From Sympetrum striolatum (Eukaryota; Arthropoda; Insecta; Odonata; Libellulidae): a stretch of 64,000 nucleotides of DNA. The notes under the pieces were generated by a model that was given only the letters and a program-made list of their open reading frames with translations, was not told where the DNA came from and did no database searches. The stretch is taken from assembly GCA_947579665.1 (NCBI GenBank), contig CANPUZ010000054.1, positions 124,001 to 188,000 on the forward strand, in the 5' to 3' direction. Positions 1 to 61,946 of the stretch are shown here, in pieces (positions within the stretch are counted from its first letter, which is position 1; the number at the start of each line of letters is the position of its first letter). Made by a program: the position numbers and the translations under genes.

Positions 1-260
1 AAAATTGGAACGTCTTTTGAGGCAGTTGTAGCCCATATTTCTGCTTGAATTTTCACACATAGTTAGAGATGGTGATGTTCTATTGTGCTGCCTAATAAGT
101 TCACAGTAAAGACCCGGGTTCGATGCCAGACGATGGAATTGCATCGAATTTTAAGGAAAATTTCAATCCATTTTTTTCTTTTGATGGCCGTCCCGATATG
201 ATGCCGACATGAAAATAGTGTTGTCGATCTGCTTGCAGTATGCAAGCAACATTTTACTCG
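1..260 (+). mobile_element. Six-module element, tail fragment (copy 0)
   Basis: This is the last module and tail of a copy that runs off the left window edge. The B-box-like core lies at 117-127. The tail carries the hairpin CTTGCAGTATGCAAG, followed by the terminal ACTCG at 256-260 and then a TA-rich run. It matches the sixth module of the complete copies almost base for base. Confidence 0.8.
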
Positions 261-274
261 TATATATATATATG

Positions 275-1408
275 GATACATGAATGAATCCGGAGAAGCA
301 TCTATATATAATAGATATATATATATATATAGAGAGGATACAAACTCACAGGCCAAACCACAAGCGTCATTGACTTGAAATTTTTACGACATATTGGCCA
401 TAGAGTGTAACCGCCAGAAAAATTGCGATTTTGCACCTCAGTGTCATGGGTTCGATTCCAGAGGGCCCCAAAGTCCCGATTTTTCCCGTTTAAATGCATT
501 GCTTTGATTTTCGGGAATTTTTAAAAAATACTTCCGGGATAGGTAGAGAATCGAAAATCTAGGAGCCTTTATATATGGTCATGATCTATCGAAAACATAA
601 ATGAGTTTTTCGGAAAATATCCTGGGTTCGACGCTAGGTCGAGGCAAAAATCGGCCGTTTAAAATGTATTGTGGCGATTTTTAAGATTTTTTTGGACCCC
701 TTCCCGATGGCATGGAAACTTGAAATTCGGCATGGAGTTGGAGATTATAAATATATTTCATAATCAAATTTTACGTATCCGCTGATGGTCCTTGGTTCGA
801 TCCCAGGGAGCCATTTACATTTCTCAATGCATTTCTTACGGAGATAACGGAAACAAAATTTAGGTACTTCCCGGCAAGCTATCGACTTCAAACTTTGTAA
901 GATACAAGAACAAGTCTTTACAAATCAAACTGTGCATTTACAGCTAACAATACGTCCAGGGTTCGACACCAGGCGTCTCTACAATCAGTCACTGATCCGA
1001 TTTTTAAGAATTATTTTGAACCCCTTCCCAATAATATTAAAACTAGAAATTCGGCATATATATAGAACTTATAGATACATTTTGAAAACATATTTTATAT
1101 TTCCTAGATCGCCCTTGGTTCGATTCCAGAGAGCTATTAACATTCGAGAAAAGTAGGTGTTCCTTTGAGGAAGTTGCAGCCAATATTTCTTCTTGAATTT
1201 TCACACGTATTTAGAGAAGATGATCTTCTGATGTGCTGCATAGAAAATTCACCAAAAAGACCCGGGTTCGATGCCAGACGATTAAATTGAAGCGAATTTT
1301 AAGAATATTTTCAATCCTTTTTTTCCTTTCCGGGACCGTCCCGATATGATGCCGACATGAAATTAGTGTTGTCTATCTGCTTGCAGTATGCAAGCTACAA
1401 TTTACTCG
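275..1408 (+). mobile_element. Six-module element, full copy 1 (head I, body alpha)
   Basis: Complete copy with six B-box-like cores starting near 449, 625, 794, 960, 1117 and 1265, so spacings of 176, 169, 166, 157 and 148 bp. Modules 2 to 5 share a second weak block (roughly CCTTCCCGAT, then AACTTGAAATTCGGCAT), which shows they are diverged tandem copies of one ancestral unit. The tail hairpin and terminal CTCG end at 1408. The short head motif (TCCGGAGAAGCATC) lies in the opposite orientation here compared with copies at 9524 and 46049. No reading frame of note. Type: non-autonomous, Helitron-like by inference. Confidence 0.8.
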
Positions 1409-59715: not shown

Positions 59716-60826
59716 ACACTGGGGATCAAAAGTCTAACCATGTTCCACAAGTGCCACCGACTTGAAATTTTTACGACGTTATGGCCATGACGTGTAACTT
59801 CCAGGAAAAAGCCGACATCGAACCTCGGTGTCATGGGTTCGATTCCAGAAGGCCCCAAAGTCCCGATTTTCTCCATAAGGATACATGGTGGCGATTTTCA
59901 AAATTTTTTAAATAATACTTGCCGGACAGGTAGAGAATCGAAATTCAAGGAGCTTACAGATATGGTCAAGAACTATTAAAAACATTAATGACTACTAATG
60001 AGAACGTCCTGGGTTCGATGCTAGGATGATGCAAAAATCCCGCATTTAAAATGCATGGGGATAGTTTTTCATTAATTTTTTGATGCACTTATCGGAATGT
60101 AAGGAACTTTTCGCTCAGATAGAATATATATATTAAGAATTTGTTTCAGAAAAAAAATTTCATAAGCCTGTACTATTCCTGGGTTCGATGCCAGAGCACA
60201 TTAACATTTCTCTCATAAGGAATATAAGGGAAAAGTAAGTCGTCGTTTGAGGCAGTTGCAGCCAATATATCTGCTTGAATTTTCGCACATAGTTAAAGAT
60301 TAATATCTTATATTATGTCGCATAGGAAGTATTACCAGAAAGATCCGGGTTCGATGCCCGGCGGCAAATATGTCTCCCGTTTAAAATACATTTGGTTGGT
60401 ATTTCATTATATATTTGATGCACTTATTGAAATGATAGGAAGTTCGTTCTTGGCTGGAAGATATATGAAAAGAATTGGTTTCAGAAAAAAAATTTCATAA
60501 GCCCGTACTATTCCTGGGTTCGATGCCAGAGAACATTAGCATTTCTCTTATAAGGAATATAATTGAAAAGTAGGACGTCGTTTGAGGCAGTTGCATTAAT
60601 ATTTCTACTTGAATTTTCTCACATAGTTACTGATGGTGATCTTCTATAGTGCTGCATAGTAAATATGACCGGGAAGACCTGGGTTCGATGCCAGACGAAT
60701 AAATTGCAGCGGAAATTAAGAATAATTTCCATCGATTTTTTTTCTTTTGAGGACTCACTCTATGTGATGCCGACAATGAATTAGTGTTATCGATGTGCTT
60801 GCAGTATGCAAGCAACATTTTACTCG
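59716..60826 (+). mobile_element. Six-module element, full copy 14 (head II, body beta)
   Basis: Head II as in copy 12. Cores near 59836, 60011, 60180, 60348, 60517 and 60681, all readable. The tail ends CTCG at 60826. Followed by a short ATTC microsatellite (60846-60866). Confidence 0.82.
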
Positions 60827-60865
60827 TACCTATATACACACTCACTCATTCATTCATTCATTCAT

Positions 60866-61946
60866 AGGGGATCAAAATTCTAACCATGTTCCACAAGTGC
60901 CACCGACTTGAAATTTTTACGACGTTATAGCCATGACGTGTAACCTCCAAAATAAATCCGACTTTGAACCTCGGTGTCGTGGGTTCGATTCCAGAAGGCC
61001 CCAAAGTCGCGATTTTCCCCATAAGAGTACATGGCGGGGATTTTCGAAAATATATTTGAGGCACTTCCCGGGAAAGGTAGAGAGTTGAAACTCGAGGGAT
61101 CGCTAGAAGCCGTGAATATCCATCGATAATCAGAAAGACATCTACGAATATTATCCTTGGTTCGATGCTAGGTCGGGGCAAAAATCGGCCGTTTAAAATG
61201 CATTGTGGCGATTTTTAAGATTTGTTTTGGACTTCTTCCCGATAATATGGAAACTTGAAATTCGGCATGGGGTTAGATATCATAAATATACTTCATAATC
61301 AAATTTTACATGTTCGCTGATGGTACTTGGTTCGATCCCAGAGGGCCATTTGCACTTCTCAATGCATTTCTTACGGAGATAACGGAAACAATATTTAGGT
61401 ACTTCCCGACATGCTATCGACTTCAAACTTTGCATGATACAAGACCAAGTTCTTACAAATCAAACTGTGCATTGACAGCGTACATGATGTCCTGGGCTCG
61501 ACACCAGGTGTCTCTGCAATCAGAAGTTGATCCGATTTTTAGGAATTTTTTTGAAACCTTTCCCAATAATATAGAAACTTGAAATTTGGCATATAAATTC
61601 AGATGATTAATAACTTTCATAAACATTTTTTAAATTTTAGAGATCGTACCTGGTTCGAGTCCCGAGAGCCATTTACATTCGTGAACATTAGAGTGTCTTT
61701 TGAGGCAGTTGTAGCCAATATTTCTGCTTGAATTTTCACACATAGTTAGAGATGGTGATCTTCTATTGTGTTTCATAGTAAGTTTACCAGTAAGACCCGG
61801 GTTCGATGCCAGACGATGAAATTTCAGCGAATTTTATGAAAAAATTAAATCCTTTTTTTTTTCTTATGAGGACCGTCCCGATGTGATGCCGATATGAAAT
61901 TGCTGATTGCCGATCTGCTTGCAGTATACAAGCTACATTTTACTCG
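60866..61946 (+). mobile_element. Six-module element, full copy 15 (head II, body alpha)
   Basis: Cores near 60982, 61159, 61330, 61497 (GGCTCGACACC), 61651 and 61800. In the tail hairpin one base is changed (CTTGCAGTATACAAG), which breaks one base pair. Ends at 61946 in the long TA run. Confidence 0.82.

What the first reader, a model, noticed from the sequence alone, without database searches (positions are those of the whole stretch)
1..61946. A repeat family with a fixed six-module design, each module built on a tRNA-B-box-like core
Eleven full copies (275, 9524, 46049, 52841, 53941, 55165, 56326, 57497, 58622, 59716, 60866) each have exactly six modules at about 148-178 bp spacing. The modules of one copy have diverged strongly from each other, yet nearly all keep GGTTCGANNCC with a following CCAG or equivalent. 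A fixed module number, near-nucleosomal spacing and one conserved core suggest a functional constraint or a strict replication/recombination mechanism. I know of no described family with this design, though bivalve pearl-like and Helentron-associated elements carry tandem units of about 160 bp.
Basis: partly seen in the sequence, partly recalled or inferred. Interest (0 to 1): 0.88.

Follow-up and report, generated by a model that had tools for sequence, protein, structure and literature searches.

The report
Self-nesting Helitron-like repeat, six B-box-like modules
These repeats are copies of a very abundant animal jumping-DNA family, apparently a rolling-circle (Helitron-like) element, that lands inside itself and nearly always carries six divergent units sharing one short motif, a motif that stays intact in lineages that multiply but decays freely once a copy has landed.

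Summary
The repeats are copies of a non-autonomous, Helitron-like element of about 1.1 kb in an animal genome of 1.35 Gb, with 30,398 exact 3' ends. It starts A|TC, has a TA/GATA microsatellite near the 5' end, then six modules, and ends with a 17-nt hairpin and 13 nt finishing CTCG|T. Removing nested inserts in a script restores intact 5' ends at 4 of 4 sites, A^T, without target duplication: the cluster at 55-61 kb is a Russian doll, c10 > c9 > c6 > c8 > c7.

Six modules is the strong mode, not a law: 123 of 132 linked copies; four- and eight-module copies occur. The core GGTTCGANNCCAG is nearly invariant between module types that are otherwise mostly 36-52% identical. In subfamily A, private alleles are as common in core as in flank (ratio 0.99), but alleles shared by four or more copies are rarer in the core (0.27; B: 0.74 and 0.12). 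So the core seems needed in copies that propagate, not kept in resident copies.

The motif fits a Pol III B box but has no A box and no T-arm pairing. TFIIIC recruitment is my leading, untested reading. No autonomous partner was linked.

The parts
316..1408 (+). c1, six modules, body A; its own 5' terminal unit is not in the window (to the left)
1..260 (+). 3' part of a copy cut by the window edge (module 6 and 3' end)
261..315 (-). 5' terminal unit of a minus-strand copy whose body lies outside the window
7384..7944 (+). truncated copy: 5' end and modules 1-2, part of 3
8789..9518 (-). truncated copy: modules 3-6 and 3' end
9524..10698 (+). c2, complete, six modules, body B
13839..14244 (-). 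truncated copy: uninterrupted 5' end and modules 1-2
28663..29476 (-). copy with both ends but only four modules
46049..47216 (+). c3, complete, six modules, body B; flanks CA| and |TT
52841..53930 (+). c4, uninterrupted; module 1 half deleted, filler before core 6
53941..55088 (-). c5, complete, six modules, body A
55091..60826 (+). c10 in two pieces, 55091-55119 and 59701-60826, interrupted by c9
55120..59700 (+). c9 in two pieces, 55120-55166 and 58621-59700, interrupted by c6
55167..58620 (-). c6 in two pieces, 55167-56282 and 58578-58620, interrupted by c8
56283..58577 (+). c8 in two pieces, 56283-56325 and 57493-58577, interrupted by c7
56326..57492 (-). c7, complete, six modules, innermost shell
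60827..61946 (+). c11, six modules, body A, own 5' terminal unit missing; followed by a long (TA)n run
61918..61946 (+). 3' terminus of c11: hairpin (one mismatch here) and tail ending CTCG; the other 13 hairpins in the window are exact

Best explanation
The repeats are copies of a non-autonomous element that most likely moves by rolling-circle (Helitron-type) transposition. Shown from sequence: ends A|TC...CTCG|T, a 17-nt hairpin 13 nt from the 3' end, insertion between A and T without target duplication, six modules in nearly all linked copies, and insertion into the TA microsatellite near the element's own 5' end, which builds nested clusters. Shown by the allele spectrum: the GGTTCGANNCCAG cores are protected in lineages that spread but not detectably in resident copies. 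Inferred: each core is a cis-acting site that a copy needs in order to be amplified. Leading guess, not shown: the cores bind a host factor, TFIIIC at B-box-like sites or another protein, which opens a copy or shields it from silencing. Six persists because present copies descend from six-module sources whose modules had diverged too far to recombine easily (inferred). Heads are exchanged, perhaps when transposition starts at a host copy's 5' end and stops at a nested copy's 3' end, as PMC5148889 proposes for Fusarium Helitrons (passages).
For: Ends and hairpin. Nesting: excision restores four 5' ends, 4 of 4 A^T, with head markers matching uninterrupted copies. No TA duplication: uninterrupted heads read CCGGATATACTT 8 and CCGGATATACCT 29 times, the one-TA forms 0 times, with 5 left junctions at that place. 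Genome-wide flanks: A before TC in 23,659 of 24,701 exact 5' ends; 30,398 exact 3' ends with T against 172 with another base under a nearly identical pattern. Nested order of ends: 102 pairs against shuffle mean 71, maximum 93 of 2000. Exact 3'-to-5' joins 347, with one TA between 1,124. Core selection: minor-allele density core/flank 0.99, 0.77, 0.27 (A, 96 copies) and 0.74, 0.24, 0.12 (B, 27 copies) for alleles in 1, 2-3 and >=4 copies; random blocks matched the last class in 0 of 2000 (A) and P 0.0005 (B). A blind scan of A puts a 22-nt run around core 3 and the 21-nt 3' hairpin above the longest null run (20). Rolling-circle machinery is present: 93 Helitron_like_N matches, many with long open frames.
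Against: The 3' end is CTCG, not CTRR. Private changes do not fall steadily from outer to inner shells: c10 3, c9 6, c6 3, c8 5, c7 1. Many ends stay unpaired in the bracket parse (102 pairs from 303 tokens). In B the private class also leans low (0.74, P 0.15), and B's clean runs barely pass the null (29 against a 95% limit of 28, maximum 41). Core 5 of A and cores 3, 4 and 6 of B are less well kept than the rest (a set with 5 duplicate rows). Assembly errors would inflate private alleles evenly and could hide weak protection of residents. No binding, transcription or transposition was measured.
Confidence: 0.72

Rival explanations
1. The cores are true B boxes: TFIIIC binds them, with or without Pol III, so each copy is a six-site TFIIIC platform that keeps source copies open or insulated. 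This is the specific form of the best explanation.
For: GWTCRANNC matches 560 of 639 core windows and variation sits mainly at the two N positions. Extra-TFIIIC sites in C. elegans overlap dispersed repeats and cluster (PMC6950938, passages). The genome has a SINE with a tRNA-like head and a similar GACCCGGGTTCGAT stretch.
Against: No A box: strict pattern 0 of 66 modules, shuffle mean 0.27; relaxed 0 of 66, shuffle mean 3.0. Constraint runs a few bases beyond an 11-nt B box (CC upstream, CCAG downstream). Only 419 of 639 match the full GGTTCGANNCC. No ChIP.
Confidence: 0.3
2. The cores are sites for the transposition machinery itself or for another dimeric DNA-binding protein (the motif is partly palindromic, CCTGG-N2-TCGA-N2-CCAGG), needed for recruitment or strand opening.
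For: Cores and 3' hairpin are constrained in the same way. Outer pair positions are kept (0.97 and 0.97 in the palindrome register).
Against: The same register keeps other pairs in only 0.58, 0.73 and 0.44 of rows. To my knowledge (recalled) studied Helitrons need no internal sites.
Confidence: 0.25
3. The element is not rolling-circle but a TA-targeting cut-and-paste element or a SINE-like retroelement with tandem B boxes.
For: Most flanks read TA on both sides (5': T at -2 in 120 of 138; 3': A at +2 in 145 of 149), which resembles a TA duplication; TA-microsatellite-targeting Mutator-like elements exist (PMC4486113, search listing only).
Against: Uninterrupted target sites keep both TAs (37 to 0); c3 has CA| and |TT flanks; no end-to-end inverted repeat above shuffles in six copies; no A box or tRNA match; no tail other than the fixed CTCG end in the aligned copies.
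Confidence: 0.07
4. The core is only a slowly changing remnant of the ancestral tandem unit, with no function.
For: The modules plainly share an ancestor, and parts of other stretches are shared too.
Against: Private mutations hit core and flank equally in A, so it is not a mutational cold spot, yet shared alleles are depleted fourfold to eightfold.
Confidence: 0.06

Closest known systems
HINE / DINE-1 (non-autonomous Helentrons), with oyster Cg_HINE and Pearl (PMC4067079, passages; PMC7492417, passages and section 7)
   Same: Non-autonomous; microsatellite near the 5' end; central tandem units of about 160-180 bp; palindrome near the 3' end; very high copy number.
   Different: Here insertion is A^T, not TT; no subterminal inverted repeat was found; units are strongly diverged and nearly always six, whereas in C. 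gigas 2-3 monomers are commonest and 15.64% of arrays hold five or more.
Canonical Helitron (Helitron1), as described in PMC4067079 and PMC5148889 (passages)
   Same: 5' TC, A^T target, no target duplication, hairpin of 16-20 nt close to the 3' end.
   Different: 3' end CTCG instead of CTRR; no coding part; partner unknown.
Fusarium FoHeli elements (PMC5148889, passages)
   Same: Self-insertion and copies with several 5' termini and one 3' terminus.
   Different: FoHeli have asymmetric inverted repeats and other target preferences; here self-insertion targets the element's own 5' microsatellite again and again.
Tukutron, a grasshopper Helitron with nested SINEs (PMC7754599, passages)
   Same: A Helitron carrying pieces with Pol III promoter ancestry (if the cores are of that origin).
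   Different: Tukutron is autonomous and carries whole and truncated SINEs, not a fixed set of six units.
CeRep3 / extra-TFIIIC sites of C. elegans (PMC6950938, passages)
   Same: Dispersed, clustered repeats with B-box sequences.
   Different: CeRep3 sites have both boxes and measured TFIIIC binding; here there is no A box and nothing was measured.
Higher-order repeats of alpha satellite (recalled)
   Same: A fixed set of diverged monomers amplified as one unit.
   Different: Here the unit has defined transposon ends and is dispersed.

Membership tests
Canonical Helitron (Helitron1) | 5' terminus TC | tested here: met
Canonical Helitron (Helitron1) | insertion between A and T, no target duplication | tested here: met
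   4 of 4 restored sites; 37 to 0; flank counts
Canonical Helitron (Helitron1) | hairpin of 16-20 nt about 11 nt from the 3' end | tested here: met
   17 nt, ending 13 nt from the end; -7.2 kcal/mol, z -3.4
Canonical Helitron (Helitron1) | 3' terminus CTRR | tested here: not met
   CTCG in 13 of 14 window ends, CTTG in one
Canonical Helitron (Helitron1) | autonomous partner (Rep/helicase) with the same ends | tested here: inconclusive
   93 Helitron_like_N matches in the genome, but their ends could not be read
HINE / DINE-1 / Helentron | insertion in TT | tested here: not met
   A^T
HINE / DINE-1 / Helentron | subterminal inverted repeats of 11-15 bp | tested here: not met
   no inverted match above the 95% shuffle level between the first 60 and last 110 nt in six copies
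HINE / DINE-1 / Helentron | 3' palindrome, 5' microsatellite, central tandem units | tested here: met
Helitron2 | hairpins at both ends and asymmetric inverted repeats | tested here: not met
   5' TCTATTATATATAGA can pair but folds no better than shuffles (z -0.06); no inverted repeat
tRNA-derived SINE | A box and B box at tRNA-like spacing | tested here: not met
   no A box in 66 modules; no tRNA match
tRNA-derived SINE | target-site duplication | tested here: not met
CENP-B-box satellite | NTTCGNNNNANNCGGGN | tested here: not met
   0 of 639 core windows (includes 5 duplicate copies)
Extra-TFIIIC site | TFIIIC occupancy | not testable with these tools
   no binding data

The most novel reading that the evidence does not exclude
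A rolling-circle element has built itself a six-fold TFIIIC platform. B-box-like cores, kept by selection only in lineages that transpose, hold source copies open or insulated from silencing, while the element's own 5' TA microsatellite serves as its landing pad, so that copies pile up in nests and keep exchanging heads. The core would then be an internal cis requirement for amplification of a Helitron-like element, as constrained as its 3' end.
Probability: 0.25. Interest if true: 0.82.

Novelty: new variant of a known kind. Interest (0 to 1): 0.6.

Why it matters
It gives a simple sequence test that separates selection on transposing sources from selection on resident copies, and in it an internal motif of a non-autonomous element behaves like the 3' end. 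If a host factor binds the cores, this would show how such elements outcompete others, and bear on why many DINE-like elements carry tandem units of about 160 bp at all. The self-landing microsatellite also explains clustered 1.1-kb arrays that could be mistaken for satellite DNA.

Tried and rejected
Chance origin of the motif: rejected. tRNA or hammerhead modules: neither appears among the 19 Rfam rows at E<=10 over the window; those rows are mostly microRNA models on AT-rich palindromes and all lie below their gathering scores. RNA T-arm: one pair is kept in only 35% of rows, without compensation. CENP-B box and NFI site: 0 of 639 each. A hidden odd/even dimer: only weakly supported (mean identities odd-odd, even-even, odd-even: A 0.50, 0.43, 0.44; B 0.54, 0.49, 0.40), though four and eight modules differ from six by a pair. 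Relatives elsewhere: two hairpin matches in viral contigs without the element's 3' tail (L001, L002), none for a module-1 pattern, none in genome contigs for the 3' end.

Corrected on the way: the five-copy singleton comparison (7/325 vs 244/4375 in A, 2/325 vs 145/4045 in B) looked like protection of resident copies; with 96 and 27 copies A shows none and B a non-significant lean. Searches used a set with 5 duplicate rows; removes them. The count of GGTTCGATTCC (54,739 against 201 reversed) includes SINE B boxes, so copy number rests on 3' ends. Nesting age by private changes was not monotone.

Not in print: in six paper searches I saw no listed title or abstract start that describes this family.
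Full report
WHAT WAS CHECKED. The window is C66:124001-188000 of a genome of 1,349,600,149 bases in 544 contigs, G+C 34.8%. Pieces of a Tc5/CENP-B-type and DDE_1 transposase at 30116-31235 and the general make-up mark it as an animal genome; the species is not known to me. GGTTCGANNCC with up to one mismatch occurs 84 times in the window against 5.1 expected.

ENDS. Flanks of isolated and clustered copies show the same two ends. The 5' end is A|TCTATTATATATAGA[T/C]GCTTCTCCGGA, followed by a TA or GATA microsatellite and the body (two variant heads). 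The 3' end is a 17-nt hairpin GCTTGCAGTATGCAAGC and 13 nt that finish CTCG|T; of 14 window ends 13 read CTCG and one CTTG. The hairpin is stable (-7.2 kcal/mol, z -3.4) while the palindromic 5' tip is not (z -0.06). No subterminal inverted repeat rises above shuffles in six copies. Uninterrupted or restored full-length six-module copies measure 1090-1175 bp.

RUSSIAN DOLL. In the cluster at 52.8-62 kb five copies form perfect shells: c10 [55091-60826] holds c9 [55120-59700], which holds c6 [minus, 55167-58620], which holds c8 [56283-58577], which holds c7 [minus, 56326-57492]. Removing each insert in a script restores the host's 5' end at all four sites, with a junction A^T and head markers that match uninterrupted copies; c9, for instance, regains the GACGTTTCTCC...ACCTATATAT head that uninterrupted c4 also has. 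In the sample, uninterrupted heads read CCGGATATACTT 8 times and CCGGATATACCT 29 times and the one-TA forms 0 times, although 5 left junctions lie at this place, so the target is not duplicated. Genome-wide the base before TC is A in 23,659 of 24,701 exact 5' ends; 30,398 exact 3' ends are followed by T and 172 by another base under a nearly identical pattern. At about 1.15 kb each, 30,398 copies make some 35 Mb or 2.6% of the genome, a lower bound (that exact pattern finds 12 of the 14 ends of the window). The order of ends in 15 stretches gives 102 nested pairs against a shuffle mean of 71 and a maximum of 93 in 2000; of 303 ends about a third stay unpaired. Exact joins of a 3' end to a 5' end occur 347 times and joins with one TA between 1,124 times. 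Against expectation, private changes do not fall steadily from outer to inner shells (c10 3, c9 6, c6 3, c8 5, c7 1); the counts are small.

HOW FIXED IS SIX. In 183 kb of contig C1, chosen around listed 3' ends within its first 2.75 Mb, plus the window, 149 3' ends were found and 132 linked to a module 1; 123 fall in the six-module length class. The nine others measure 344, 636, 650, 659, 659, 876, 880, 1195 and 1341 bp from core 1 to the end; 636-659 fit four modules and 1341 eight. By core chains in the C1 samples alone, 109 of 113 linked copies have six, two four, one seven and one eight; 22 further ends were not linked. The window's own four-module copy has both ends. Six is a strong mode, which I explain by descent. 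Two body subfamilies exist: A, with last spacings 157 and 148, and B, with 166-169 and 165-166. Within A only modules 3 and 5 are clearly alike (69%); within B modules 3/5 (87%) and 4/6 (72%). Two head types combine with both bodies (62, 23, 18 and 7 copies, 13 unclassified), which points to exchange of heads.

THE CORE. Apart from those pairs and the counterparts between A and B, module types are 36-52% identical in the alignment of consensus modules. Yet 11 of 11 core columns agree in at least five of six types in each subfamily, against 11 and 14 of 132 flank columns. The decisive test is the spectrum of minor alleles among copies, on the cores of modules 2-6. In subfamily A (96 copies) alleles seen in one copy are as dense in the core as in the flank (34 at 55 sites, 475 at 760 sites; ratio 0.99). 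The ratio is 0.77 for alleles in two or three copies (block permutation P 0.14) and 0.27 for four or more (10 against 515; 0 of 2000 permutations). In subfamily B (27 copies) the ratios are 0.74 (P 0.15), 0.24 (P 0.03) and 0.12 (P 0.0005). The plain reading: the core mutates freely once a copy sits in the chromosome, but copies with altered cores leave few descendants. The last 46 nt of the element show the same pattern (A 0.57, 0.33 and 0.11 alleles per site), but that end was also used to find the copies. A blind search for runs without common variants in A puts a 22-nt run around core 3 and the 21-nt 3' hairpin above the longest run of 1000 permutations (20); core 1 gives 13, at the 95% level. 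In B the longest runs are cores 2 and 5 (29 and 28 nt), but the null is longer there (95% at 28, maximum 41), so B alone would not prove it. Core 5 of A and cores 3, 4 and 6 of B are less well kept than the others (a set with 5 duplicate rows). Assembly errors would add private alleles evenly and could hide weak protection of residents.

WHAT THE CORE MIGHT BE. As DNA it fits the Pol III B box: GWTCRANNC matches 560 of 639 core windows, GGTTCGANNCC 419, and variation between types sits mainly at the two N positions (639 includes 5 duplicate copies). It is not a tRNA arm: one T-arm pair is kept in 35% of rows, without compensation, and no A box lies 20-80 nt upstream in 66 modules. CENP-B box and NFI site are excluded (0 of 639). 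Genome-wide GGTTCGANNCCAG occurs 162,968 times against 119 for the reversed pattern. In 247 kb, 845 core hits lie inside the family and 10 outside: two belong to a SINE-like repeat with a tRNA-like head (29.2 bits, gathering 29), six rows (five places) to single-core repeats that share a second block like CCATAAGAAATACATG, two to neither. Module 1 of A carries a similar block (CCATAAGAATACATGG), so the module may have older single-unit relatives. TFIIIC or a similar host factor is my best single guess, at about 0.3, and a transposase or other palindrome-binding protein is next at about 0.25.

MEMBERSHIP. It works like a Helitron: TC start, A^T target, no duplication, 3' hairpin at the right distance. 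One defining feature of canonical Helitrons, CTRR, is not met. HINE/DINE-1 membership fails on target and on subterminal repeats, though the plan with microsatellite, central repeats and palindrome is the same (PMC4067079 and PMC7492417, passages and one section). I file it as a non-autonomous Helitron-like element of a new variant, not as a member of either named group.

LIMITS. The species is unknown, Repbase and Dfam were not searched, the copy sample comes from one end of one chromosome-size contig and was chosen through exact 3' ends, the element's ends were matched with a few mismatches allowed, and no binding, transcription or transposition was measured.

Noticed in passing
contig C1 of the genome (128.1 Mb): Of the 69 head-to-tail joins (with one TA) on C1, 23 lie in the first 10 Mb, 35 in the last 22 Mb and 11 in the 96 Mb between: the family seems concentrated in the distal arms.
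   Followed up: partly
contigs C8, C9, C26, C27, C1, C5 and others: 93 Helitron_like_N matches, many in open frames of 1,500-1,892 codons and falling into several score groups: apparently young autonomous Helitrons.
   Followed up: partly
window 10706-11170: A different repeat with a (TGTC)n microsatellite and one core at 11101, followed by CCATAAGAAATACATGG; a tRNA-like A box seems to lie about 43 nt upstream (by eye; Rfam gave no tRNA there). Similar single-core repeats at L041:69, L054:9226, L058:9389 and window 27484.
   Followed up: partly
L042:566-680 (C1:104.6 kb): A SINE-like repeat with a tRNA-like head in two inverted copies (tRNA 29.2 bits); its B-box stretch GACCCGGGTTCGATTCC resembles module 6 of the element.
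   Followed up: partly
window 55090-55147; C5:1188974-1189287: Stacked 5' terminal units. In the window they come from nested insertions; on C5 five units follow at 41-82 bp, perhaps a small array of 5' ends.
   Followed up: partly
window 30116-31235: Pieces of a pogo/Tigger-like transposase: HTH_Tnp_Tc5 and CENP-B_N, then DDE_1.
   Followed up: no
window 18361-19510 and 27913-28662: A second repeat with 190- and 317-bp tandem units that ends exactly at the 3' end of the four-module copy.
   Followed up: no
window 61947-62147: (TA)81 followed by (ATC)13 directly after c11, then an insect-like repeat (taxon by eye, from recall; for the arrays).
   Followed up: no
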